This document shows, piece by piece, positions 7,281 through 57,838 of a DNA stretch of 62,373 nucleotides. Under the pieces are notes generated by a model, which searched no databases, was not told the origin of the DNA, and saw only the letters and a list, made by a program, of their open reading frames with translations. The translations under genes and the position numbers were made by a program. The first letter of the stretch is position 1. Every line of letters starts with the position of its first letter. This DNA is from Candidatus Treponema merdequi (GTDB taxonomy: Bacteria; Spirochaetota; Spirochaetia; Treponematales; Treponemataceae), in NCBI GenBank assembly GCA_018064525.1, contig JAGHVB010000003.1, positions 1 to 62,373 on the forward strand, given 5' to 3'.

Positions 7281-10200
7281 CAGCCGTTAACCTCTGGTTG
7301 TGAGTTGTCAGTTGATTCTGAATTTTCTGCTTTATCAGAAGAAGCTGCTGTTTCTGAACTGTCATTTGAAACAGCTGAATCCGGAGTGTTTTCAGAGTTT
7401 TCTGTCTGCTTACTGTCCGCGGCTTGAGAAGTTCCACTTATATCAAAATTCTGTTCTGAGGCAGGTTTTGAAAGATCTGGACGAGGCGGAAGTTTTACAC
7501 CCTGTTCTGGTTCTACATCTTCTTCTACAAAGTCATCGTTTTCGTGAATGACTTCTTTTCTGATTGTTTCGATGTCATCATCAAGACGGAGTGCGATGAT
7601 TTTTGAAACGCCTGACTCTTCCATTGTAACACCGAGCATAGAGCCTGCACCCATTACAGTTTTCTTGTTATGTGTAATTACGATGTACTGGCTTATGTTT
7701 GCAAATGATGTCAAAGCAGTTACAAAGCTTGAAACGTTCTTGTCATCAAGTGCGGCGTCAATTTCGTCGAGGAGACAGAATGGACTTGGTCTTACCTGAT
7801 AAGTTGCAAAGAGGAGTGCGATAGCAGTCATTGTTTTTTCACCACCGGAAAGGAGAGCGATGTTTTCGAGTTTTTTTCCTGGTGGCTGTGCAAGAATATC
7901 GATACCGGTTGTAAGGATATTTTCAGGATCTTCAAGCCTGAGTTCTGCGTGACCTCCGTTAAAGAGACGGCGGAACATATTGTGAAAGTTCTTTTTGATT
8001 TTATTGTATGTATCAAGGAACATGTCACTTGATTTTGCTTTGATTTCCTGAGAAACAAGAATAAGGTCGTCAAGCGATTTTTTAGTATCGTTGTAGTTTG
8101 CTTCCTGTCTTTCGTAACGGTCTTTTACTTCTGTAAACTCTTCTGGAGCCATGAGGTTGATGTTGTGACCGAGATCTTCGAGTTTCTGTTTTTCTTTTGA
8201 AAGATTTTCTTTTAATTGGGCAACAGGAGTGATGATCTTATACATCTGCTCTTCGTAGTCCATAAGGTCGCGTGAATACTGATCAAGAAAGTTCTGCTTG
8301 ACGTTTCTGATTTCTGTATCGAGTGATCCCATTGAAACAGAAAGCTGTTCGTACTGGCTCTGATATTTGTTCTGCAGATCCTGTTTTTTCTTGAGGTCGT
8401 TTTCTTTACCGGCATTTTTGTTGTTAAAGTCATCAATCTGTTTGTAAAGACTGTTCTGTTTATCAACTGTTTCAGCACCGCGTCTTTCAATTTCTGCAAG
8501 TTCTTCGTCGATAGATTCAATCTGTTCCTGAGTGTCTTCGAGGCGTTTTGTTTCGCCGTAGATTTCATCTTCGTTTGTCTGAAGGTTTGCTTTTTCAGAA
8601 GTGATGTTGCGCTGAATCATTGTGATTTTTTCTTCAGTTGATTTAAGCTGTTCGGCCATTGCAACTTCATTCTGTTTGAGTTTATAAAGTGTGTCTTTGT
8701 ATTCATCGATCTTCATTGAGAGTGTTACATTTGTTGCATTGAGATCTCTGATTGTCTGATTGTATTCTGAAACTAAGCGGAGGTTTTCTGCAATTCTGGA
8801 ATCGATTTCGCGTTTTTTTGTAATGATTCCTTCTGGTGCAAGAAATTCACTGATAAATGCAGGAGAAGCATTGATGTAAGAAGTGAGTGATTTATCGAGT
8901 GAGAGAATCATATTGTTTGCTTCTTCAAAAGCATCAGCTGCTTCTTTTACAAGTTTTGATCCTTCATCAATAGAGCGGCAGCCGCTTCTTGCAGCATCAC
9001 CGAATACATTCTTTCTTCCTTCTGTGAATACACGGAGTTTTCCGAGAATTTCCTCGAGCTGTGATTTTGCTGTATTCATAGCGGCTTCAGAGTAGCCTGC
9101 GTCTTTTAATTTTGAATCGAGTTTTGTAACGATGTCTTCTGTGATTGCAGTTAAATCTTTCTGAAGCTGTTCACGCTGAATGTCGAGTTCTTCAATCTGA
9201 CGGCGTTTTTCTGCAGCTCGCTGGTCGTTTTCTGTAATCTGAGTTCCTGCTGTGTCGATGTTTGCCTGGAATGATTCGATATTTTTTTTGATGTCGGCAA
9301 GGTATTTTGTTTTTTCGTGAAGGCTTGCATGAGCTTCATCGATTTCTTCTTCTGCTTCGTCAATTCTTTCCTGAATTAATTTCTGCTTTGATTCGAGCTG
9401 TGAAATTTTTTCTTTGATTTCTGCAAGTCTTGAGTTCTGCTGTTTCTGAAGTTCAAGTTTTCCATTTTTCATGCTTTGAATTTCTGTGAGTTCATTCTGG
9501 CATGTGTAAACCTGTTCCTGAAGATTTTTTACAAAGTCGCGGTTTTCCGTGAGAGAGTTTTGAATTTCTTCGATTTCTTTTCGAACACTGTCACGTTTTT
9601 CTTCGATTTCTTTGATGGAATTTTCATTGCGCGATTTTGTTTCGATAAAGCCTTTTAGGCGTAAAAGCTGAATCTCAAGCTGAATGTTAAAGATTTCTTC
9701 TTTTATTTTTCGAAACTTTGTAGTTTTGTCAGCCTGAATTTTTAATGTATCATAACTTCTTTTTATTTCTGCAAGTGAAACTTCAATCTGAGTTAAGTTT
9801 TGTCTTGTCTTTTCAAGTTCACGTTCAGCTTCTGCACATTCAGCTTTTGAACGGCTGATACCTGCGGCTTCTTCAAAAAGATAGCGGCGGTCTTCCGGTT
9901 TGCTCGAAAGAATCTGGTCGATTTTTCCCTGTTCCATTACAGAGTAAGCAGCTTTACCGACACCGGTGTCCATAAAAAGTTTTCTGATTTCTGAAGGACC
10001 AACCTGACGGCCGTTTATAAAATACTGAGCTTCACCGCTTCTGTAGAGACGGCGTTTAATTTCGATTTCAGGATCTTCAAGGGGAAGAAGACCGTTTTCA
10101 TTCATGATTGTGAGCGCAACTTCTGCAACGTTAAGGGCAGGGCGGTTAGCAGTTCCCGCAAAGATAACGTCTTCCATTTTGTCTGCACGAAGGTTCTTGC

Positions 10201-10357
10201 TTTTATTTTCTGCAAGTACCCACTTCATTGCATCAACTACGTTACTCTTACCGCATCCGTTTGGACCGAGCAGCGCTGTAATTCCACTTGAAAAATCTAT
10301 ATGAGTTCTGTCAGCAAATGACTTAAATCCAAAAATATCTAGACTTTTTAAAAACAC
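7280..10357 (-). CDS. smc: Chromosome partition protein SMC
   Basis: ATPase that organises and condenses the chromosome as a dimer with ScpA/ScpB. The N-terminal head has Walker A (GPNGCGKSN); two long coiled-coil arms follow; the C-terminal head has the ABC signature (LLSGGEK) and Walker B (FCLLDEIDAALDDKN). The start is placed at the GTG of 10357 because AAGG (10367-10370) is nine bases from it but touches the alternative GTG at 10366. At about 1025 residues it is shorter than the usual 1150-1200, and the middle (about 400-530) lacks an obvious glycine-rich hinge. The last 90 residues or so are a disordered Ser/Glu/Asn tail. First gene of a three-gene coupled operon. Confidence 0.93.
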   Translation of the reverse strand: MFLKSLDIFGFKSFADRTHIDFSSGITALLGPNGCGKSNVVDAMKWVLAENKSKNLRADKMEDVIFAGTANRPALNVAEVALTIMNENGLLPLEDPEIEIKRRLYRSGEAQYFINGRQVGPSEIRKLFMDTGVGKAAYSVMEQGKIDQILSSKPEDRRYLFEEAAGISRSKAECAEAERELEKTRQNLTQIEVSLAEIKRSYDTLKIQADKTTKFRKIKEEIFNIQLEIQLLRLKGFIETKSRNENSIKEIEEKRDSVRKEIEEIQNSLTENRDFVKNLQEQVYTCQNELTEIQSMKNGKLELQKQQNSRLAEIKEKISQLESKQKLIQERIDEAEEEIDEAHASLHEKTKYLADIKKNIESFQANIDTAGTQITENDQRAAEKRRQIEELDIQREQLQKDLTAITEDIVTKLDSKLKDAGYSEAAMNTAKSQLEEILGKLRVFTEGRKNVFGDAARSGCRSIDEGSKLVKEAADAFEEANNMILSLDKSLTSYINASPAFISEFLAPEGIITKKREIDSRIAENLRLVSEYNQTIRDLNATNVTLSMKIDEYKDTLYKLKQNEVAMAEQLKSTEEKITMIQRNITSEKANLQTNEDEIYGETKRLEDTQEQIESIDEELAEIERRGAETVDKQNSLYKQIDDFNNKNAGKENDLKKKQDLQNKYQSQYEQLSVSMGSLDTEIRNVKQNFLDQYSRDLMDYEEQMYKIITPVAQLKENLSKEKQKLEDLGHNINLMAPEEFTEVKDRYERQEANYNDTKKSLDDLILVSQEIKAKSSDMFLDTYNKIKKNFHNMFRRLFNGGHAELRLEDPENILTTGIDILAQPPGKKLENIALLSGGEKTMTAIALLFATYQVRPSPFCLLDEIDAALDDKNVSSFVTALTSFANISQYIVITHNKKTVMGAGSMLGVTMEESGVSKIIALRLDDDIETIRKEVIHENDDFVEEDVEPEQGVKLPPRPDLSKPASEQNFDISGTSQAADSKQTENSENTPDSAVSNDSSETAASSDKAENSESTDNSQPEVNG

Positions 10358-10435
10358 TGTAAACACCCTTGATGTTTATTAAGAATATTGTACTATAATA
10401 GCACTTTTTGGGCAGAAATTCAATTGTGAGTTGCG

Positions 10436-10474
10436 CAGGGGGACAGTCCTGGTGGTGCAGGGGGACAGTCCCTG
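10436..10474. repeat. Tandem REP-like palindromic units
   Basis: Two near-identical units, CAGGGGGACAGTCCTG (10436-10451) and CAGGGGGACAGTCCCTG (10458-10474), lie side by side between the helicase stop and the smc start. Each is itself roughly palindromic (CAGGG with CCCTG). The local base composition is much more GC-rich than its surroundings. It resembles REP-type intergenic repeats; no transposase is nearby. Confidence 0.5.
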
Positions 10475-10493
10475 TTACTATCAATAGTTGTTT

Positions 10494-11660
10494 TTACTCG
10501 TCATATTCAATGTCGGCGGGGTTTACGACCTTACCTTTATAGAGGACTTTCGGGTAGACTGTGAGACCGAATTTTTTTTCGAGGGCAGCGTATTTCCGCA
10601 TTTCGTATTCGTCACCGATTACGACATTTATGCCTGTAAGACCTGCGCGGGCGGTACGGCCTGAACGGTGGATGAAAAAGTCTTCGTTTGACGGAAGATC
10701 CATCTGAATGATGTGGGTTATTCCCTGAATGTCGAGTCCGCGGGAAGCAAGGTCAGAAGTGATAAGAATGCGGCATTTTCCGTTTCTGAAGCGGTCGATG
10801 GCTGCTTTTCGTTCTTTTTTGTCTGTTTTGGCGTGAAGTGCCATACAGTCTACTTTTTTGTATAGTAGTTTTGAAGCGATGTTTTCGACCTGGTCGGCGC
10901 GGCTTGTAAATACGAGTGCCTTTTCAGGGTTTTCGGCGAGAATAAAGCTTTTGAGGGCTGCGATTTTATCACGGTTTTCGGCAAAGATTGCCCAATGAGT
11001 GATTTTCTTTGATAAAATGTCTTCTTTGGGCATTATAATCTGGCTCGGGTTTGAGAAAATTCCACCTAAAACCTTTTTAGTATTTTCGTTGATTGTAGCA
11101 GAGCAGGCGATGAACTGTGCGTCACATGGAATCGAGGCGAGGAGTTTTTTTGTTTCGTCTGCAATTTCGACAGAGACAAGGCGGTCTGCTTCGTCGAGGA
11201 CGACTGCCTTTACATTTGAAGTCTTGAGCTTTTTAAGGTGAATGAGTTCGAGGATGCGGCTCGGATTTCCGATTATGATCTGAGGTTTTTCCTTGAGGGC
11301 TTCAATCTGGCGTTTGAGCGGAGTTCCGCCGATAAAGAGACTTGTTTTCAGGCTTGTGATTTTTGCGGCTGTTGATTTTATCTGGGACGCAAGTTCGTAT
11401 GTCGGAGCGATGATGATTATTCTGTCTTCTTTTGATGGAACTTCTTCGAGCGCCTGCACTAATGGAAGCAGAAAGGCGAAAGTTTTACCTGTTCCGGTTT
11501 CAGATTCGAAAATTACATTTTTTTTCTGTAAGATTTCTGGAATTACGGCAGCCTGAATTGAAGATGGCGATGTAATTGAAAGTTCTTCGAGTTTTTTTGA
11601 AAGTTCTTCTTTAATGTTGAGGCTGGTAAATGTTTTTGATTCGTTAGTATTCTGTTCCAT
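10494..11660 (-). CDS. DEAD-box ATP-dependent RNA helicase
   Basis: 388 residues covering both RecA-like domains with little extra tail. Visible motifs: Q-region (SIQAAVIPEIL), I (SETGTGKT), Ia (PTYELASQ), Ib (GTPLKRQ), II (DEAD), III (SAT), IV (ALVFTSR), V (SRGLDI) and VI (HRSGRTARAG). It would unwind short RNA duplexes in ribosome assembly, mRNA decay or cold adaptation. It cannot be assigned to a named subfamily (RhlE, CshA, DeaD) from motifs alone. It is divergent from the glycosyltransferase at 11708. Its -10 box ends only six bases before the ATG, so its mRNA is likely leaderless. Confidence 0.93.
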   Translation of the reverse strand: MEQNTNESKTFTSLNIKEELSKKLEELSITSPSSIQAAVIPEILQKKNVIFESETGTGKTFAFLLPLVQALEEVPSKEDRIIIIAPTYELASQIKSTAAKITSLKTSLFIGGTPLKRQIEALKEKPQIIIGNPSRILELIHLKKLKTSNVKAVVLDEADRLVSVEIADETKKLLASIPCDAQFIACSATINENTKKVLGGIFSNPSQIIMPKEDILSKKITHWAIFAENRDKIAALKSFILAENPEKALVFTSRADQVENIASKLLYKKVDCMALHAKTDKKERKAAIDRFRNGKCRILITSDLASRGLDIQGITHIIQMDLPSNEDFFIHRSGRTARAGLTGINVVIGDEYEMRKYAALEKKFGLTVYPKVLYKGKVVNPADIEYDE

Positions 11661-11666
11661 ATTTAC

Positions 11667-11699
11667 AGTATAGCAAATAGGGGCAATCTATGCTATAAT
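11667..11699. promoter_or_regulatory. Divergent extended -10 promoters
   Basis: Minus strand: TGC-TATACT (-10 at 11667-11672), six bases before the helicase ATG. Plus strand: TGC-TATAAT (-10 at 11694-11699), eight bases before the ATG at 11708. The two boxes lie in an inverted repeat (TATAGCA 11669-11675, TGCTATA 11691-11697). There is no good -35 and no ribosome binding site for either gene. Confidence 0.6.
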
Positions 11700-11707
11700 C
11701 GGTCATT

Positions 11708-12814
11708 ATGAAAGTTGGAATAGATACTTTCGGACTTGATCACGGGCAGTCTGGACTTGGTTCTTATTTATATTATCTTATGCAGAACCTTGAAGAAGAC
11801 AAGGATATTGAATACGAACTTTTTGGTCAGGAAGCCGATCGTTATACATATAAAGCAAAATTCGACGTTGAATATACAGCTGTGAATGTTTCTGACAATG
11901 TAAGAAAACAAAGGGCCTGGCATTTTTTTAAGGCAGACAGATTTGCAGCCCAGAGAAAATACGATGTCGTAATTTACAGCGCCGCAAACAGAATGATTCC
12001 GTCGAGTTTTTCGGTACGTTCAATTGCAATTGTAAATGACATTGTTTCAAATCAGTATAATGACAAAAAAGACAAATATTTTCGTAATGTTGTAATTCCA
12101 TCTTTCAAAAAAATAGATACTATAGTTGCTCCGAGTGAATATGTAAAAAATGATCTTACGGCACTTGGCATTACTCCTGAAAAAATTGCCGTCATTCCAA
12201 ACGGAATCGATCATTCGATTTTTTACCAGCAAGGTTTGACGGATGTAGAATATGTAGACATAAAACCTTACGCAATTAAAAGACCATATATAATTTATCC
12301 GACAAAAATTTCTGGCCCTGATAAAAATTATGAACAGCTTATCAAGGCTTTTAATATTTTCAAAGAAAAAACAAAACTTGAACATCGCCTTGTTCTTGCC
12401 GGAAGTCAGACGGATTATGCAGAAGAAGTAATGAGGTTTGTTCTCGATTCTCCTTTTGCAACTGATATTTTCATGACTGGATTTTTTCCGCATAAAGAAC
12501 TCGGAACTCTTTATGCAAATGCCGATGCATGTATTTTCCCGTCGAGCCAGGAAGGTGTCGGTCTTCCGATTCTTGAAACGATGGCAAGTGGAATTCCTGC
12601 CGCGTGCGCTGATAAGGGTGCGCTTTCTGAAATATCTGGCGGAAATGCGGTGCTGTTTGATCCTGATGATGTTGATGGAATGGCAGCTGCAATTGAAAAA
12701 GTCGTGTGTGATAATGATGTGCGGGGCAGTTTAGTGGAACGCGGTTTAAAGTGGTCCGGGGAATTTACCTGGAAGAAAACTGCGGAGAAGATTGTGGAGT
12801 TGATTAAAAAATAG
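11708..12814 (+). CDS. Glycosyltransferase, GT4-like family
   Basis: 368 residues with the GT-B fold of glycosyltransferase family 1/4. It has an N-terminal acceptor domain with the Gly-rich start (FGLDHGQSGLGSYLYYL), the linker motif IPNGIDHSIF and the C-terminal donor-site motif EGVGLPILETMASGIP, which carries the E-x7-E pair that holds the nucleotide sugar. It probably retains configuration when adding a sugar to a glycolipid or polysaccharide; substrate unknown. Cytoplasmic, no membrane segment. It stands alone, with a promoter shared back to back with the helicase gene and no evident leader. Confidence 0.88.
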   Translation: MKVGIDTFGLDHGQSGLGSYLYYLMQNLEEDKDIEYELFGQEADRYTYKAKFDVEYTAVNVSDNVRKQRAWHFFKADRFAAQRKYDVVIYSAANRMIPSSFSVRSIAIVNDIVSNQYNDKKDKYFRNVVIPSFKKIDTIVAPSEYVKNDLTALGITPEKIAVIPNGIDHSIFYQQGLTDVEYVDIKPYAIKRPYIIYPTKISGPDKNYEQLIKAFNIFKEKTKLEHRLVLAGSQTDYAEEVMRFVLDSPFATDIFMTGFFPHKELGTLYANADACIFPSSQEGVGLPILETMASGIPAACADKGALSEISGGNAVLFDPDDVDGMAAAIEKVVCDNDVRGSLVERGLKWSGEFTWKKTAEKIVELIKK

Positions 12815-12864
12815 ATACAAAGATGTAAAGGATTTTTTTTGTGATACTTAAGAGGTGAGATTAA

Positions 12865-13385
12865 TTAGTTGCCGGGGCAATCACAACGTCTTTGACAATC
12901 TCTTTTATTTTTCTCGATTCCTTGTTCAATTTCATCTTCGAGGCCGTCGTTATACCAGGCTCTGTGAATTGATTCTTCATCGTATGCTGTCAAACTCATA
13001 GCTAAGATCTCCTCTTTCTGCAATTTGAAAAAGCCGTCAAAAAGATTTTCTTTAATTGCCCAGTCCACGGCTTCATTGACCGCCTCTTTTGCAGTCAGTC
13101 TCTTTTTCTTGTTGTCTGAAATTCTTGAAACGTAACTTGTATAATTATATAACGGCTGACAGATTTTTTGAAGAGTCTCATTGTGTCCCGGGTTGATGTT
13201 TATCATCTCTGCAGTCCATTCAAAAGCAGTGGCATATTCGGATTATACGTACTCTGCTGTTCATAGAGATTCATCTGTGAATCGATGAGGAACGACACGT
13301 CATTTTTCATCGTGATGTAAATTACATTTTCGATCGTGTTGAGTTTGATTTGCGATGTCTGAAAATTGTCAATCGGCGGAACCAA
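12865..13385 (-). pseudogene. Decayed Rpn/PD-(D/E)XK nuclease family transposase
   Basis: Two fragments on the minus strand. The first (13203-13385) carries LNTIENVIYITMKNDVSFLI and NLYEQQSTYNPNMPL, the typical N-terminal region of Rpn-type recombination-promoting nucleases. The second (12865-13206) begins at INPGHNETLQKICQPLYNY and carries the C-terminal half (TAKEAVNEAVDWAIKENL) in another frame. The central part with the PD-(D/E)XK catalytic residues is missing between them, and the extreme N-terminus is also lost. An internal deletion has joined the two halves. Non-functional as a nuclease. Confidence 0.75.
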
Positions 13386-13464
13386 TTGAGTCGTTCATCT
13401 TTTTGCCTCCACACTTATAATACGCGCGTTTACAAAAAATATATCCAATTTTTAAATTTTTTAA

Positions 13465-13495
13465 TTGACATCAAAACGTCCCCCCCCCCTATACT
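13465..13495 (+). promoter_or_regulatory. Consensus promoter with a C10 tract in the spacer
   Basis: TTGACA (13465-13470) is a perfect -35 and TATACT (13490-13495) a near-perfect -10. The 19-bp spacer ends in ten consecutive Cs (13480-13489). A spacer of 17 bp is optimal, so loss or gain of a C or two by slipped-strand mispairing should switch promoter strength. It drives the lipoprotein at 13565. Confidence 0.8.
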
Positions 13496-13564
13496 ATGTT
13501 TAGAAACGATGTTTTTGTCTTCGGGCATTTTTTCGAGAGAGATTTTTTATTGTTGAGGAAAATT

Positions 13565-14641
13565 ATGAAAAAGTTTTTAAATGGAATTGCACTCATATTG
13601 TGCGTGATGTCTTTCTGCGTGTTTGCAGGATGTTCTTATGCGAATAATTCGCCAGCGCCTGCTCCAGGTCCAATACCAGGACAGACCGGAATTCTAGAAA
13701 TAAAAGCAGGTGTCAAACCGGATGATGTTTTTGGAGAACAGACTATGCCAATATTTTCTTCGCCTTCAGTAGATCATATATTTATTTCAGAAAGTGGTGC
13801 AGGTTTAAAAGGGTATCTTATTGCATCAGATGATGAAGATGCGTCAACATGTGAAGGATATTCTGGTTCAACTGATATAGTAAAATATCAATGGTATTCT
13901 GGTACAACAGGAAACTGGCAGTTATTAACCGGAGAAACTTCTGGAAGAATACAAATTACAATTGTACCTGGGACAACTTATTATATCTGTGAAGCATTAA
14001 GTGAAGATGGTAACAGTAAAACTTACAGCAATGTATGTACAATACAATGTGGTATAGAAGGGGTTACTGATAATATCGGTAAGATTGCGTATTCAGATGG
14101 AACATACAGCTCGGAATATAATTCAGAAAAAACACCAATAGGAGTAATTTATGATGTATATCCAAATGGAAACCCAAAGCTTATTTTAAACTTTAATTAT
14201 GCTAGTTCAGAATCTTGGAGTCATTCTGAACTAGCTTATGATAAAAACTTTATAAAAGATGTAACAACTCCAATAAGTTATATTGATGGCAGTAAAACCT
14301 GGCAGGTAATATGTGACAATATTGATGCAAAAGAATTAGACTTATTTTATGCTTTTGTTTTTTGCAATAATCTGACAGATGGTAATAAAAACTGGTATTT
14401 ACCTGCAAGGGATGAACTTGTGACATTGTATTACAATAAACCTGCTGTTGAAGCAGCATTTAGAACATTAAAAGACGGTGGTTTTTTGGACAGGCTGTTA
14501 GAAATGGAAGGCTGGTATTGTTCAAGTTCTCAATATTCAACCTTAAATTATTGTTCATGGGGTGTTGATTTTACTGATGGTGATTATTTTTTACTTAATA
14601 AAAAGAAAAGGGCGGGTGTTTTTGCCATATCACATTTTTAA
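13565..14641 (+). CDS. Lipoprotein with DUF1566/Lcl-like domain, candidate phase-variable
   Basis: The start is set at 13565 because GAGGAA lies just upstream and the protein then opens with a proper signal peptide and lipobox (FCVFAGCSYAN); upstream in-frame starts lie over the promoter. 358 residues. After a Pro-rich linker comes the segment KAGVKPDDVFGEQTMPIF, a beta region with WYSGTTGNWQ, and a C-terminal DUF1566-like block (WYLPARDEL, WYCSSSQYS, SWGVDF). It is paralogous to the lipoprotein at 2774. Probably surface-exposed; ligand unknown. Its promoter contains a poly-C tract. An imperfect hairpin with a T run follows at about 14720. Confidence 0.8.
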   Translation: MKKFLNGIALILCVMSFCVFAGCSYANNSPAPAPGPIPGQTGILEIKAGVKPDDVFGEQTMPIFSSPSVDHIFISESGAGLKGYLIASDDEDASTCEGYSGSTDIVKYQWYSGTTGNWQLLTGETSGRIQITIVPGTTYYICEALSEDGNSKTYSNVCTIQCGIEGVTDNIGKIAYSDGTYSSEYNSEKTPIGVIYDVYPNGNPKLILNFNYASSESWSHSELAYDKNFIKDVTTPISYIDGSKTWQVICDNIDAKELDLFYAFVFCNNLTDGNKNWYLPARDELVTLYYNKPAVEAAFRTLKDGGFLDRLLEMEGWYCSSSQYSTLNYCSWGVDFTDGDYFLLNKKKRAGVFAISHF

Positions 14642-14718
14642 TTTTCATATTTTTTTTGTGCATTCAATAAGATAAAGATTAAAATTAAAATCATGGATAT
14701 AATAATTTTATAATATAA

Positions 14719-14766
14719 AAAAAACAGAAACCTCCGAATTTAATTCTGAAGTTCCTGTTTTTTTTA
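14719..14766. terminator. Bidirectional terminator between lipoprotein gene and clpX
   Basis: An imperfect stem-loop (AACAGAAAC-CT..GAATT with AATTC..GTTCCTGTT) has As before it and Ts after it, so it can stop transcripts from both the lipoprotein gene (+) and clpX (-). Confidence 0.65.
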
Positions 14767-14831
14767 TTAGTGCTTAATCCGTGAAATAAGTTTTTATTAT
14801 TTTTTCACAAACCGTATATTATCAGTTTAAC

Positions 14832-16094
14832 TTATGCAGTCTTTTCAACAAGAAGTGATTTTGCGTCTGGTAACTTTCCACTTGTTACAAAGTCTTTTGT
14901 AATTTCGAGTTTCTTTTTTCCTTTGACACTTGGAATTTCGTACATGATGTCGAGAAGCATTTTTTCAACGATTGAACGGAGTCCTCGTGCACCTGTTTTC
15001 TGTTTGATTGCAATGTCGGCAATTTCTGCAATTGCATCTTCTGTGAAAGTTAAATCAACATCGTCCATTGCAAAACTTGCCTGGAACTGTTTTGTGATTG
15101 CGTTCTTTGGCTGAGTCAAAATCGAGATGAGGTCATCGCGTGTCAATTCTTTGAGTGCTACAGAAATCGGCATACGACCGATTAATTCTGGAATGAGACC
15201 GAATTTTACAAGGTCATCTGAAGTAACCTTGTTTAAAAGTTCCATCTTTTCTTCGTCTGTCATAGTTCCTGCTTTTGAGCCAAAGCCCATCGCGTGATCA
15301 TTTGTACGCTGTTCGATGATTTTATCAAGTCCGACAAATGCACCGCCAAGAATAAAGAGGATGTTAGTTGTATCGATTTCAAGCATTTCCTGGTTCGGAT
15401 GTTTTCTTCCGCCCTGAGGTGGAACTGAGGCTTTTGTTCCTTCGATGATTTTGAGGAGTGCCTGCTGAACGCCTTCTCCAGAAACGTCTCGTGTGATTGA
15501 AGTGTTTTCGCTTTTGCGTGCAATCTTATCGATTTCGTCGATAAAGATGATTCCTTTTTCGGCGGCGGCAATGTTTCCGTCTGCTGCATTTATCAATTTG
15601 AGAAGAACGTTTTCTACATCTTCTCCAACATATCCGGCTTCTGTCAAAGTTGTTGCATCTGCAATTGCAAATGGAACTTTAAGTTTTTGTGCAAGTGTTT
15701 TTGCGAGCAGTGTTTTTCCGCTTCCTGTAGGTCCGATTAAAAGGATGTTTGATTTTTCAATTTTGACATCTGATTTTTCAAAGTTTTTAAGGGAAGCCAT
15801 TCTCTTGTAGTGATTGTAAACTGCAACAGAAAGTGCTTTTTTTGCATAGTCCTGACCGATAACATACTGGTCGAGGTAAGCTTTAAATTCTTTTGGAGAT
15901 GGAACTTCTGTTAAATCGATAGAAAGATCTTCGCCGGGTTCTGAATCGAAAATTCCCTGACAGATTTCTACACATTCATTACAGATGTAAACCGGTGCAA
16001 TGCGTGATCCGATTAATCTGCGTATGTCATCTTTTTTATTTCCAGCCGGAAGTCCGCAGAACGCGCAGAATTCCTGATTACCAATTTTTTTCAA
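14832..16094 (-). CDS. clpX: ATP-dependent protease ATP-binding subunit ClpX
   Basis: 420 residues. AAA+ unfoldase that feeds substrates to ClpP. The N-terminal zinc-binding domain has its four Cys (FCAFCGLP and [10 protein letters not shown]); the AAA+ module has Walker A ([12 protein letters not shown]), Walker B ([11 protein letters not shown]), and the C-terminal sensor-2 region ([10 protein letters not shown]). Translation starts at a TTG two bases after the clpP stop, with AAGGGAG inside the end of clpP as ribosome site. The clpP-clpX order and tight spacing show co-transcription. Confidence 0.98.
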
Positions 16095-16096
16095 AA

Positions 16097-16696
16097 TTAT
16101 TTTCTCCCTTCCATAACAAAGTCAACAATACCGTATTCCTTTGCTTCTTTTGCACTCATGAAAAAGTCTCGTTCGATATCAGAAGCGATTTCTTTTTCTG
16201 TTTTTCCTGTGTCATGTGCAAGATATTCAATCGAAAGTTTTTTAAGTCTCTGAATTTCTTTTGCCTGTATTGCGATGTCTGTTTCCTGACCTTCAGTTCC
16301 GCCGGAAGGCTGGTGAATGAGGACTCTTGAAGACGGAAGAATGAAGCGTTTGCCTTTTGTTCCACCTGCAAGAAGAATTGCACCCATGCTTGCAGCCTGT
16401 CCAAGACAAATTGTCTGAATCGGGCATTTTACGTAGTGCATTGTATCGTAAATGGCAAGACCTGCGGTTACAGAACCGCCTGGTGAGTTGATGTACATGC
16501 TGATGTCTTTGTCAGGATTTTCTGACTCAAGGAACAGAAGCTGTGCAATGATGATATCTGCACTTTCATCATTTATCTGACCGTCTACGAAAATAATTCT
16601 GTCTTCGAGAAGACGGGAGTAGATATCGTATGCACGTTCACCGTTTCCGCTTTTTTTGATTACTGTTGGAATCTGATAAAACATCTGTTCGTTCAT
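16097..16696 (-). CDS. clpP: ATP-dependent Clp protease proteolytic subunit
   Basis: 199 residues, the usual length. Serine peptidase that forms a double heptamer with ClpX. The catalytic Ser is in GQAASMGA, the His in IHQPSGG, and the Asp further on ([10 protein letters not shown]). The N-terminal DUF opens with [20 protein letters not shown]. It is first in the clpP-clpX operon. tig lies upstream on the same strand but is separated by its own terminator, so clpP has its own promoter. Confidence 0.98.
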
Positions 16697-16744
16697 TTTA
16701 TGTCCCTGTATTAATTCGATTTCTTTTTTTGTCGTATAGTATTC

Positions 16745-16753
16745 AGTATAGCA
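16745..16753 (-). promoter_or_regulatory. Extended -10 promoter of clpPX
   Basis: On the minus strand TGC-TATACT, the same extended -10 sequence as in front of the helicase gene. It gives a leader of about 40 bases before the clpP start at 16696. No convincing -35. Confidence 0.45.
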
Positions 16754-16801
16754 AAAATAATTAAAATCGTCATTATTTTTTAGTTTCCCTTCAATTTTAA
16801 T

Positions 16802-56258: not shown

Positions 56259-56272
56259 TAACCGTTTTCAAG

Positions 56273-56305
56273 GTTAAGTAAGAAAGACTGGTAGAAATAC
56301 CAGTC
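56273..56305 (+). repeat. gap 3' segment, copy 1 of a 33-base duplication
   Basis: These 33 bases include the gap terminator stem. They recur without change at 56520-56552. Weaker similarity extends about 20 bases upstream, through the end of gap (TGCTAAT...TTCAA). Confidence 0.8.
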
Positions 56306-56312
56306 TTTTTTT
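56284..56312 (+). terminator. Terminator of gap
   Basis: GACTGGTA-GAAA-TACCAGTC followed by seven Ts. Confidence 0.9.
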
Positions 56313-56519
56313 GTTTAAAGAGAAGTATTTGTTGGATGTTAATGTTAGATATCAGTAGAAATGTCAGTATCAATTCTTTTATGTGATGTGTAAGAGTTTT
56401 CATTATCATTCGATTCGACTGTCGCAATTCGATCGTGCACGTGAGTGCACATGTTAATAATTTCCTTGAAGATCCCGGCACCGAAGGTGACGGATAACTG
56501 CTAATTAACAGGATTCAAT
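56313..56519. other. Intergenic region with no gene found
   Basis: About 200 bases between the gap terminator and its duplicate. There is one small hairpin (GTGCAC-GTGA-GTGCAC at 56435-56450). I see no ORF with a ribosome site and no recognisable RNA. Confidence 0.6.
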
Positions 56520-56552
56520 GTTAAGTAAGAAAGACTGGTAGAAATACCAGTC
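56520..56552. repeat. gap 3' segment, copy 2
   Basis: Exact copy of 56273-56305. It places the same terminator stem at the 3' end of the peptide cluster, where it can stop minus-strand transcripts (T-rich sequence follows on that strand) as well as plus-strand ones. The last codons and stop of the small ORF at 56521-56712 lie inside it. Confidence 0.8.
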
Positions 56553-56712
56553 GTTTTTTTGCTCTGAGGGCAGAATTGTTGTCTTGAGGTAGCAGGATTA
56601 ATTCATCCTGTTTATTATCCTGATTGCCTTTATCGGAGGAATCAGATTTAGGTCTGGTTTTCTGCTTCTTTTTAATTAAGAAATCTATATCCAGTTTATA
56701 AAAGTTCATCAA
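56521..56712 (-). CDS. Possible peptide fragment related to the SPKK-tailed peptide
   Basis: 63 codons with a weak start (TTG or ATG at 56709-56712) and no leader. Its middle (DELILLPQDNNSALRAKKR) resembles the two tail repeats of the upstream peptide (NIRPDNDRSLSPKKKKR and EILINPGKDSSLSPKRK), and the DNA matches in the same frame (CTCAGA-GCAAAAAAA against CTCAGC-CCAAAAAAG). The C-terminal RLVFLPVFLT is encoded by the duplicated gap terminator, so this is probably a truncated remnant, not a working gene. Confidence 0.35.
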   Translation of the reverse strand: MMNFYKLDIDFLIKKKQKTRPKSDSSDKGNQDNKQDELILLPQDNNSALRAKKRLVFLPVFLT

Positions 56713-56722
56713 GTTTGCTAAG

Positions 56723-57025
56723 TTATTTTCTTTTTGGGCTGAGCGATGAATCTTTGCCCGGGTTAATGAGGATTTCGCCTTCCTGGCCTTTACCCCAGAT
56801 GTTTTCTGCTTCAGATCTCTTTTTCTTTTTTGGGCTGAGCGAACGATCGTTATCTGGTCTTATATTATCCCAGTTGTAGCCTGCTGCATTTACCATATCA
56901 AGATCTGAATCATTGAGCTGGTTTTCAACAGATTTTAAAGTGGAATTGATTACGCCTTCAAGTTTTTCGCTTTTTGAAAAGCCCTGAAAGTCAAAAAGTG
57001 TTTTAAGTTTATCTCTTGTATTCAT
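56723..57025 (-). CDS. Putative double-glycine-leader peptide with SPKK-like tail repeats
   Basis: 100 residues, starting at the ATG of 57025: GGAGG lies five bases before it, while the ATG at 57037 would itself contain the ribosome site. Residues 1-20 (NTRDKLKTLFDFQGFSKSEK) are identical to those of the peptide at 57477, and the leader ends in LDMVNAAG, like the (E)LDxVxGG cleavage motif of Nif11/NHLP-type precursors. The predicted core is hydrophilic and contains a repeated unit (NIRPDNDRSLSPKKKKR, then EILINPGKDSSLSPKRK). No Cys. It looks like an exported peptide or RiPP precursor. No modifying enzyme or transporter is adjacent. Promoter: TTGTAC, 18 bp, TATAAA at 57066-57095. Confidence 0.7.
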   Translation of the reverse strand: MNTRDKLKTLFDFQGFSKSEKLEGVINSTLKSVENQLNDSDLDMVNAAGYNWDNIRPDNDRSLSPKKKKRSEAENIWGKGQEGEILINPGKDSSLSPKRK

Positions 57026-57096
57026 ATTTTCCTCCATACTTGTAGTTTTATCCGCAAGTCACATATTTATACGAATGGTGACAGAAAAAGTACAAA
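56959..57096 (-). repeat. Duplicated promoter-leader unit, copy 1
   Basis: 138 bp covering the promoter, ribosome site and first 20 or so codons of the SPKK-tailed peptide gene. It matches 57701-57838 with only two differences, both in the untranslated leader. It marks a recent duplication in which only the core has changed. Confidence 0.9.
57066..57095 (-). promoter_or_regulatory. Promoter of the peptide gene at 57025
   Basis: On the minus strand TTGTAC (57090-57095) and TATAAA (57066-57071), 18 bp apart, give a leader of about 35 bases. The same promoter is repeated 742 bases away. Confidence 0.5.
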
Positions 57097-57136
57097 GTAA
57101 ATTAAGAATGTAAATTATTTTACGGATTAAAAATAA

Positions 57137-57157
57137 AGGACTGTTATTCGAAGTCCT
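57137..57157 (-). terminator. Terminator between the two peptide transcription units
   Basis: AGGACT and AGTCCT pair over nine bases, followed on the minus strand by TTATTTTT. It ends the unit carrying the peptides at 57477 and 57222. Confidence 0.65.
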
Positions 57158-57221
57158 CGAAATTGTCTCGAATCCATTTGAATCATGGTAAATACTTTTT
57201 TCGTGTGTATTCCCCTGTACC

Positions 57222-57431
57222 TCAATCATTATATCTGATTTGAACACGCATTCTTTCTGAAATTTGATATCCGTTTGGATCATCAGATTGTGATGTTATT
57301 TTTTGGTTCTTAAAAGCATCTATTTTTTTTAAGAATGCATCGTTATTTTGTGCAGTTCCACCAGAAATCTGTTCCAGATCTTCATCTTTAAGTCCATAAT
57401 TTTCGTTTGAATGATTAATATCTTTGTTCAT
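57222..57431 (-). CDS. Putative bacteriocin-type peptide with ISGG leader
   Basis: 69 residues. Good ribosome site (GAGGAGAC) ahead of the ATG. The leader NYGLKDEDLEQISGG has the classical double-glycine form (L..xDLEQISGG) cleaved by C39-peptidase ABC transporters. The predicted core (44 residues from TAQNNDAFLKKIDAFKNQ) is hydrophilic, without Cys, and ends in basic ERMRVQIRYND. It is 45 bases after the peptide at 57477 in the same unit. A bacteriocin or signalling peptide are both possible; no immunity gene is seen. Confidence 0.65.
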   Translation of the reverse strand: MNKDINHSNENYGLKDEDLEQISGGTAQNNDAFLKKIDAFKNQKITSQSDDPNGYQISERMRVQIRYND

Positions 57432-57476
57432 AAGCGTCTCCTCGAATAAGTTCTTCCAGGATTAGAAAGATTTATT

Positions 57477-57767
57477 TCATGCTTTCATATCAATGGTATC
57501 TTTCAGCTTTGGAATGTTAAGGTCACTACAATGAATTGAATCCCGGTTCATATCAATGATTTTTTTCATCTTTTCAATGTCTACCATCATTGTCGGGATG
57601 TTTTTTTCGGCATCAGGTGTTCCTGCTGCGTTTACCATGTCGAGTTCTTCTTCTGTCATCTGGCTGTCAATTGAGCTCAATGTATTTTTGATGACTTGGT
57701 CAAGTTTTTCGCTTTTTGAAAAGCCCTGAAAGTCAAAAAGTGTTTTAAGTTTATCTCTTGTATTCAT
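57477..57767 (-). CDS. Putative double-glycine-leader peptide, second core
   Basis: 96 residues from the ATG at 57767 (GGAGG five bases upstream). The first 20 residues are identical to the peptide at 56723, and the leader ends in ELDMVNAAG. The core is different: two weakly similar units (DIEKMKKIIDMN and IPKLKDTIDMK), one Cys in IHCSDLN. The identical leader with a new core is the pattern of a precursor family using one shared processing and export system. Promoter at 57808-57837, a copy of that at 57066-57095. Confidence 0.7.
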   Translation of the reverse strand: MNTRDKLKTLFDFQGFSKSEKLDQVIKNTLSSIDSQMTEEELDMVNAAGTPDAEKNIPTMMVDIEKMKKIIDMNRDSIHCSDLNIPKLKDTIDMKA

Positions 57768-57838
57768 ATTTTCCTCCATACTTGTGGTTTTATCCTCAAG
57801 TCACATATTTATACGAATGGTGACAGAAAAAGTACAAA
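57701..57838 (-). repeat. Duplicated promoter-leader unit, copy 2
   Basis: Direct copy of 56959-57096, offset by 742 bases, with two mismatches over 138 bp. Confidence 0.9.
57808..57837 (-). promoter_or_regulatory. Promoter of the peptide gene at 57767
   Basis: TTGTAC (57832-57837) and TATAAA (57808-57813) on the minus strand, identical in layout to the other copy. Confidence 0.5.

What the first reader, a model, noticed from the sequence alone, without database searches (positions are those of the whole stretch)
56521..57838. Cluster of small peptides with double-glycine-like leaders and no processing genes
Seen: four consecutive small ORFs on the minus strand. Two (57025 and 57767 starts) share an identical 20-residue N-terminus and a leader ending in LDMVNAAG but carry different cores. 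The third has a classical leader ending in DLEQISGG. Known: such leaders mark exported bacteriocins and RiPP precursors cleaved by C39-peptidase ABC transporters. Inference: this is a peptide secretion or RiPP system of a treponeme whose processing machinery is encoded elsewhere. I know of no described counterpart with these sequences.
Basis: partly seen in the sequence, partly recalled or inferred. Interest (0 to 1): 0.85.

Follow-up and report, generated by a model that had tools for sequence, protein, structure and literature searches.

The report
Sigma-factor-controlled exported peptides in Treponema
The window holds one of at least seven scattered peptide-gene islands that appear to share a single promoter type, one regulator (an ECF sigma factor) and one peptide-cutting exporter encoded elsewhere in the genome, and two of its peptides belong to an unnamed family that sits next to that regulator's gene in two bacterial phyla and may control it.

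Summary
Three of the four ORFs look real; the fourth overlaps a terminator. The missing machinery is in the same genome, on another contig: ECF sigma, NHLM-type HlyD, C39 peptidase-transporter, second ABC transporter, binding protein and TolC. It carries the only C39 transporter found.

Both AAG peptides are preceded by an ECF-like promoter, TTGTMCTTTTT-N9-KTCGTATAAATA. A genome scan found seven more sites. Six precede small ORFs with textbook double-glycine leaders and one precedes an ABC exporter. The motif occurs in 13 of 14 related genomes that have the exporter and in none of 13 that lack it. LanC and YcaO are absent, so RiPP modification is unsupported, though radical SAM was not excluded.

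The shared leader is a new family, absent from Pfam and NCBIfam. It keeps the C39 recognition residues but has Ala-Ala where Gly-Gly belongs, and its tail is short and variable. In 31 of 37 loci, Treponema and gut Firmicutes, its gene lies within 150 nt of the sigma gene. In four it heads a membrane-anchored protein. AlphaFold confidence in it rises when sigma is attached. I therefore favour, unproven, a sigma-regulating role for the AAG peptides rather than a bacteriocin role.

The parts
57477..57767 (-). AAG-leader peptide copy 1 (96 aa; MNTRDKLKTLFDFQ...EELDMVNAAG + 47-aa tail)
   Evidence: ORF with ribosome site; leader profile E=1.4e-21 in own genome; family aligned
56723..57025 (-). AAG-leader peptide copy 2 (100 aa; same first 22 residues, different 51-aa tail with two SLSPK motifs)
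   Evidence: leader profile E=1.5e-20; duplicated DNA D1
57222..57431 (-). Double-glycine peptide (69 aa; leader MNKDINHSNENYGLKDEDLEQISGG), 45 nt downstream of copy 1, so probably in its transcript
   Evidence: matches the C39 consensus L-12, acidic -8, L-7, I-4, GG by inspection; no NCBIfam family over cut-off
57806..57837 (-). ECF-type promoter-like motif before copy 1: TTGTACTTTTT-N9-TTCGTATAAATA
   Evidence: exact pattern match; model R1 E=8.6e-5
57064..57095 (-). Same promoter-like motif before copy 2
   Evidence: exact pattern match; model R1 E=1.9e-5
57622..57838 (-). Duplicated block, promoter plus leader, copy 1
   Evidence: direct repeat D1, 86% identity
56880..57096 (-). Duplicated block, promoter plus leader, copy 2
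   Evidence: direct repeat D1
56533..56552 (-). Terminator-like hairpin closing the island, 8-bp stem
56521..56712 (-).
   Evidence: TTG start, no clear ribosome site, overlaps the terminator

Best explanation
The island belongs to a dispersed regulon of exported peptides in a Treponema genome. An ECF sigma factor encoded as the first gene of the NHLM export operon (G000:C43) most likely drives promoters of the type TTGTMCTTTTT-N9-KTCGTATAAATA at scattered islands, each encoding one to three small peptides with double-glycine leaders. One exporter (C39 peptidase-ABC1, ABC2, HlyD, TolC) would cut the leaders and secrete the cores. The island in the window adds one such substrate (57222-57431) and two copies of a special AAG peptide. 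That peptide keeps the C39 recognition helix but has Ala-Ala for Gly-Gly. My preferred role for it, at about 0.5, is control of the sigma factor: its N-terminal helices bind sigma and it is withdrawn through recognition by, or export through, the C39 transporter, so that precursor synthesis follows export capacity. SHOWN by sequence: exporter, motif distribution, leaders, linkage to sigma. INFERRED: that this sigma reads the motif, that the peptides are secreted, and the AAG peptide's regulatory role.
For: Exporter: one C39 gene over cut-off in the genome; operon over the cut-offs of TIGR03794, TIGR03796 and TIGR03797, with an ECF sigma. Motif: seven own-genome sites with two mismatches or fewer outside the window; six have a double-glycine ORF just downstream, one an ABC exporter; chance about 2e-14. 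Model R1: 59 sites with E<=0.01 in 13 of 14 exporter-bearing genomes, none in 13 without; six genomes that supplied no training site hold 26 of them. In relatives the sites precede leader-sigma genes, Nif11/double-glycine precursors and some Sec or lipoproteins. Linkage: leader gene within 150 nt of sigma in 31 of 37 distinct loci, often overlapping, in Treponema and Firmicutes. Four treponeme loci carry the leader domain on a ~480-aa protein with a membrane segment at residue ~68, three of them divergent from a sigma gene. AlphaFold pLDDT of leader residues 1-20 is 64/63 alone and 83/92 with sigma attached.
Against: No expression, secretion or binding data. In G000 itself the sigma operon has no clear motif in front of it and the AAG genes lie on another contig, so the link to this sigma rests on relatives; other ECF sigmas in G000 were not listed. 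The two window copies have longer tails (47 and 51 aa) than the 26 relatives aligned (10-22), which could be real cores. The AlphaFold gain has no control fusion, pTM is only 0.51 and no interface was seen. Ala-Ala is not a known double-glycine variant (GG, GA, GS; PMC6363468), so cleavage there is uncertain. In relatives about a third of motif sites precede Sec-type or lipoproteins, so the regulon is wider than exported peptides.
Confidence: 0.75

Rival explanations
1. All three peptides, AAG ones included, are ordinary exported bacteriocin or microcin precursors of the NHLM exporter; the sigma factor is simply the pathway regulator and its gene happens to lie beside one precursor.
For: Duplicated leader with unrelated cores looks like precursor diversification. 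The C39 recognition residues are intact. Some family members have Gly-Gly (L200, L202, L203).
Against: Linkage is to sigma rather than the transporter. Tails in relatives are 10-22 aa, hydrophilic and poorly conserved, mean top-residue frequency 0.24 against 0.59 in the leader. In Firmicutes the tail end commonly overlaps the sigma start. A membrane-anchored version exists.
Confidence: 0.3
2. The AAG peptide is a secreted pheromone: cleaved and exported, then sensed through the operon's periplasmic binding protein, inducing the sigma regulon.
For: The operon contains a Peripla_BP_6-type lipoprotein beside the exporter, conserved in the treponeme loci. Motif before the leader-sigma genes suggests positive autoregulation.
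Against: Tails are not conserved even between related genomes. No transmembrane signal relay to sigma is visible. Binding proteins of this class usually take amino acids (general knowledge).
Confidence: 0.15
3. The promoter motif is read by another ECF sigma, and its link with the NHLM exporter is indirect.
For: The motif also precedes secreted proteins in relatives. G000's NHLM operon has no clear motif directly upstream.
Against: No motif in 13 genomes without NHLM. In relatives it sits directly upstream of the leader-sigma genes.
Confidence: 0.15
4. The ORFs are untranslated remnants or chance ORFs.
For: Small size. The island lies beside broken repeats of the GAPDH gene end.
Against: Ribosome sites, conserved leaders, conserved promoter, homologues in two phyla.
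Confidence: 0.03

Closest known systems
NHLM/NHLP and Nif11 peptide export (Haft, Basu and Mitchell 2010, PMC2887384)
   Same: Same three exporter genes (TIGR03794, TIGR03796, TIGR03797); double-glycine leaders; exporter rather than any maturase is the common factor.
   Different: The window's peptides match neither NHLP nor Nif11 leaders over cut-off. Precursors are scattered and share an ECF-type promoter. A sigma-linked leader family is present. The paper does not contain the terms sigma factor or Treponema.
Treponema denticola TepA/TepB exporters with bacteriocin-signal proteins (PMC4947327, PMC11879956)
   Same: C39 ABC transporter plus HlyD protein in a treponeme; substrates with double-glycine signals, detected in supernatant without bactericidal activity.
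   Different: Two-gene exporters with clustered substrates; no sigma regulon mentioned in the parts read. I did not compare the Tep sequences here.
FlgM / sigma-28
   Same: Hypothesis only: a small sigma-binding protein removed by an exporter so that expression follows export capacity.
   Different: Different sigma type and different exporter; no sequence relation shown.
ECF sigma / anti-sigma control of lantibiotic clusters, such as microbisporicin MibX/MibW (known to me from memory; several papers mention it)
   Same: An ECF sigma switches on a peptide pathway.
   Different: Actinomycete, single cluster, and an ordinary membrane anti-sigma.
Prochlorosins (Nif11 leaders, one ProcM; PMC10783134)
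   Same: Many precursors served by one central machine.
   Different: Modified by a LanM; no LanC-like gene here.

Membership tests
NHLM-type peptide exporter | HlyD, C39-ABC1 and ABC2 over the curated cut-offs of TIGR03794, TIGR03796 and TIGR03797 | tested here: met
   305 (cut-off 156), 1004 (853) and 788 (709) bits
NHLM-type peptide exporter | Peptides in the window carry an NHLP or Nif11 leader | tested here: not met
   No NCBIfam model over cut-off for the window peptides; TIGR03798 at E 0.13 only; no TIGR03798 match in the genome
C39 double-glycine substrate | Leu(-12), Glu(-8), Leu(-7), hydrophobic (-4) recognition residues (PMC6363468) | tested here: met
   By inspection in the third window peptide and the other island peptides (acidic residue replaced by M in one), and in both AAG peptides if AA is placed at -2/-1, with Met at -12 in copy 1 and Asp at -8 in copy 2
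C39 double-glycine substrate | GG, GA or GS at the scissile site | tested here: not met
   Holds for the third window peptide (GG) but not for the two AAG peptides, which have AA followed by G
RiPP pathway | A post-translational modification enzyme | tested here: inconclusive
   No LANC_like, no YcaO; 17 radical-SAM genes, mostly housekeeping by eye, one 256-aa gene (G000:C58) undecided
Class II bacteriocin | Antimicrobial activity of the processed core | not testable with these tools
   Needs peptide and bioassay
ECF sigma regulon | Sigma-70 regions 2 and 4 in the regulator | tested here: met
   PF04542 and PF04545 over cut-off
ECF sigma regulon | Shared promoter before the regulon genes, tied to presence of the pathway | tested here: met
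   59 sites in 13 of 14 exporter-bearing genomes, 0 in 13 without, E<=0.01
ECF sigma regulon | Sigma directs transcription from the motif | not testable with these tools
   Needs in vitro transcription or a deletion
Anti-sigma factor | Gene next to, or co-transcribed with, the sigma gene | tested here: met
   31 of 37 distinct loci within 150 nt; not so in the window's own genome
Anti-sigma factor | Match to a known anti-sigma domain | tested here: not met
   No Pfam or NCBIfam family for the leader; therefore not filed as a member
Anti-sigma factor | Binds sigma | tested here: inconclusive
   pLDDT of leader residues 1-20 rises from 64/63 to 83/92 with sigma attached; no control fusion, no interface data

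The most novel reading that the evidence does not exclude
The AAG peptide is a sigma-binding regulator built on an export leader. A decoy substrate with the C39 recognition helix but Ala-Ala for Gly-Gly is shared between an ECF sigma factor and the peptidase of an NHLM exporter, so that a scattered set of secreted peptides is transcribed only when the exporter can take them. It would be an ABC-exporter analogue of FlgM, present in spirochaetes and gut Firmicutes, with a membrane-anchored variant.
Probability: 0.33. Interest if true: 0.9.

Novelty: new variant of a known kind. Interest (0 to 1): 0.75.

Why it matters
NHLM exporters and orphan double-glycine peptides are common, but what switches them on and which orphan peptides belong to which exporter is usually unknown. 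A shared ECF-type promoter lets unlinked precursors be assigned to their exporter by sequence alone, and exposes a regulon of secreted peptides in treponemes. The sigma-linked AAG family makes a direct question testable: does an ABC peptide exporter report its state to a sigma factor through a decoy substrate?

Tried and rejected
Pfam and NCBIfam searches of the four ORFs gave only weak chance matches. Nif11 (TIGR03798), LANC_like and YcaO: none in the own genome. A strict pattern with the whole GTCAC...GTGAC repeat around the -10 matched only the two window sites, so that inverted repeat is not the shared element. A weak leader hit at G000:C43:118643 has internal stops and lies in an oxidoreductase gene. 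Sites with three mismatches have no leader ORF and look like chance. The fused model matched only sigma factors in the PDB, with the leader part essentially untested; no anti-sigma fold was seen for it, which shows nothing either way. Literature searches found no paper in the held library linking an ECF sigma with NHLP/Nif11 or C39 leaders.

Full report
OBSERVATION. The minus strand between 56.5 and 57.9 kb holds two AAG peptides (57477-57767 and 56723-57025), a double-glycine peptide (57222-57431) and a doubtful fourth ORF. The AAG genes are a 217-nt duplication at 86% identity that covers promoter and leader but stops before the core. The fourth ORF starts with TTG and runs through a terminator hairpin. 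The neighbours, GAPDH on one side and an ArsR-type regulator with a permease on the other, offer no processing genes.

WHERE THE MACHINERY IS. One gene in the 2.70-Mb genome passes the C39 cut-off. It lies in an operon on another contig (G000:C43, locus L006): ECF sigma 7775-8278, HlyD 8275-9561, C39-ABC1 9545-11752, ABC2 11773-14025, periplasmic binding protein 14038-15240, TolC family 15270-16769. The three central genes pass the cut-offs of the NHLM exporter families; the sigma has regions 2 and 4. The C39 domain keeps the Cys, His and Asp motifs by inspection.

THE LEADER FAMILY IS TIED TO THIS MODULE. A profile of the AAG leader found strong matches (E<=1e-10) in 20 of 196 same-genus genomes. 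The C39-ABC1 family is over cut-off in 26 of the same 196, and 19 genomes have both; the exception is 72% complete. In the relatives the leader gene sits beside an ECF sigma gene, often with the exporter genes nearby. A scan of named genomes identified the relatives as rumen and gut Treponema and also found the family in Lachnospiraceae, Ruminococcus, Mediterraneibacter, Oscillospiraceae and other Clostridia. There too it directly precedes, often overlaps, or follows a sigma gene. Counting distinct loci with usable flanks, 18 of 22 treponeme and 13 of 15 Firmicutes leader genes lie within 150 nt of a sigma gene (my count, duplicates removed). Several loci have no exporter in the DNA held. The window genome is an exception: its two copies are not beside the sigma gene.

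A PROMOTER AND A REGULON. Upstream of the leader genes the same element recurs: TTAGCCTTTTT or TTGTMCTTTTT, N9, TTCGTATAAATA. A pattern scan of the window's genome gave nine sites with two mismatches or fewer, two in the window. Of the seven others, six are followed within about 130 nt by small ORFs with double-glycine leaders: LSLICGG and LNLICGG (C14), LNNVVGG (C51), IKKVSGG (C70), LEQINGG (C2), LNTISGG (C18), LENICGG, LDTISGG and LEKVSAG (C86). The seventh precedes an MsbA-like ABC exporter 4.7 kb upstream of the NHLM operon. A random position has such an ORF downstream with probability 0.0037, which gives about 2e-14 for six of seven. One island peptide passes NCBIfam's bacteriocin-signal model TIGR01847.

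INDEPENDENT TEST. A sequence model of the motif (R1) was run on 14 genomes with the exporter and 13 without. At E<=0.01 it found 59 sites in 13 of the first group and none in the second. Six genomes that contributed no training site (G013, G024, G051, G166, G004, G059) hold 26 of them. Of about 31 relatives' sites inspected downstream, 13 precede Nif11-like or double-glycine precursors and about 10 precede Sec-type secreted proteins or lipoproteins. The regulon is therefore exported peptides plus some envelope proteins.

WHAT THE AAG PEPTIDE IS. It matches no Pfam or NCBIfam family over cut-off. Published C39 work places Leu-12, Glu-8, Leu-7 and Val-4 in the peptidase groove and allows GG, GA or GS at the cut (PMC6363468). 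With AA set at -2/-1, the leader ELSDDELEMVNAA-G of L061 fits the groove residues exactly, and the window copies fit with Met at -12 or Asp at -8, yet the scissile pair is Ala-Ala. Three Firmicutes members have Gly-Gly. The part after AAG is 10-22 residues in 26 relatives and poorly conserved (0.24 against 0.59 for the leader), so the conserved function lies in the leader. In four treponeme loci (L068, L074, L080, L120) the leader domain heads a ~470-495-aa protein with a membrane segment near residue 68; three of these are divergent from a sigma gene and the fourth lies at a contig edge. That is the architecture of membrane anti-sigma factors. In L061 leader and sigma are in one frame with a single stop between them, so a natural read-through could be modelled: leader residues 1-20 gain confidence (64/63 to 83/92) when sigma is present. 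This is suggestive only: pTM is 0.51 and no control fusion could be run.

VERDICT. The finding is real and larger than reported. The exported-peptide part is well supported by sequence. The RiPP part is not. That the AAG peptide regulates sigma through the exporter is my leading but unproven reading (about 0.5 for a regulatory role in general, 0.33 for the specific decoy/FlgM-like mechanism).

Noticed in passing
window 56259-56559: The GAPDH terminator is duplicated (54 nt, 91%), and on the minus strand near 56314-56440 lie short inverted fragments resembling the 3' end of the GAPDH gene: a small rearrangement scar beside the peptide island.
   Followed up: partly
L068:3812-5263, L074:3305-4792, L080:3537-4985, L120:155-1564: AAG leader domain fused in frame to a membrane segment with lipobox-like Cys and a large C-terminal domain without Pfam match, followed by two lipoprotein genes, near an NHLM exporter.
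   Followed up: partly
L154, L158, L160, L163, L165, L171, L173, L174, L176, L177, L178: Nif11-like precursors under the same promoter; the cores visible are mostly hydrophobic (GGG.GSWFK.NWK..A.GAAIVVGAAL), resembling class II bacteriocins or membrane-active peptides.
   Followed up: no
L076, L078, L079, L119: Radical-SAM genes lie beside AAG leader genes in some treponemes, so in those species the peptides may be modified.
   Followed up: no
G000:C43:146081 (L006:3082-5097): An MsbA-like ABC exporter gene carries the regulon promoter and lies just upstream of the NHLM operon; possible self-protection exporter.
   Followed up: no
L006:14038-15240: A Leu/Ile/Val-type periplasmic binding lipoprotein is part of the NHLM operon and conserved across the treponeme loci; its role in a peptide export operon is unexplained.
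   Followed up: no
L106/L118 (G000:C86): Three consecutive peptide genes with different cores under one promoter, including Cys-rich ones; the C14 island has two paralogues with a conserved CC pair.
   Followed up: no
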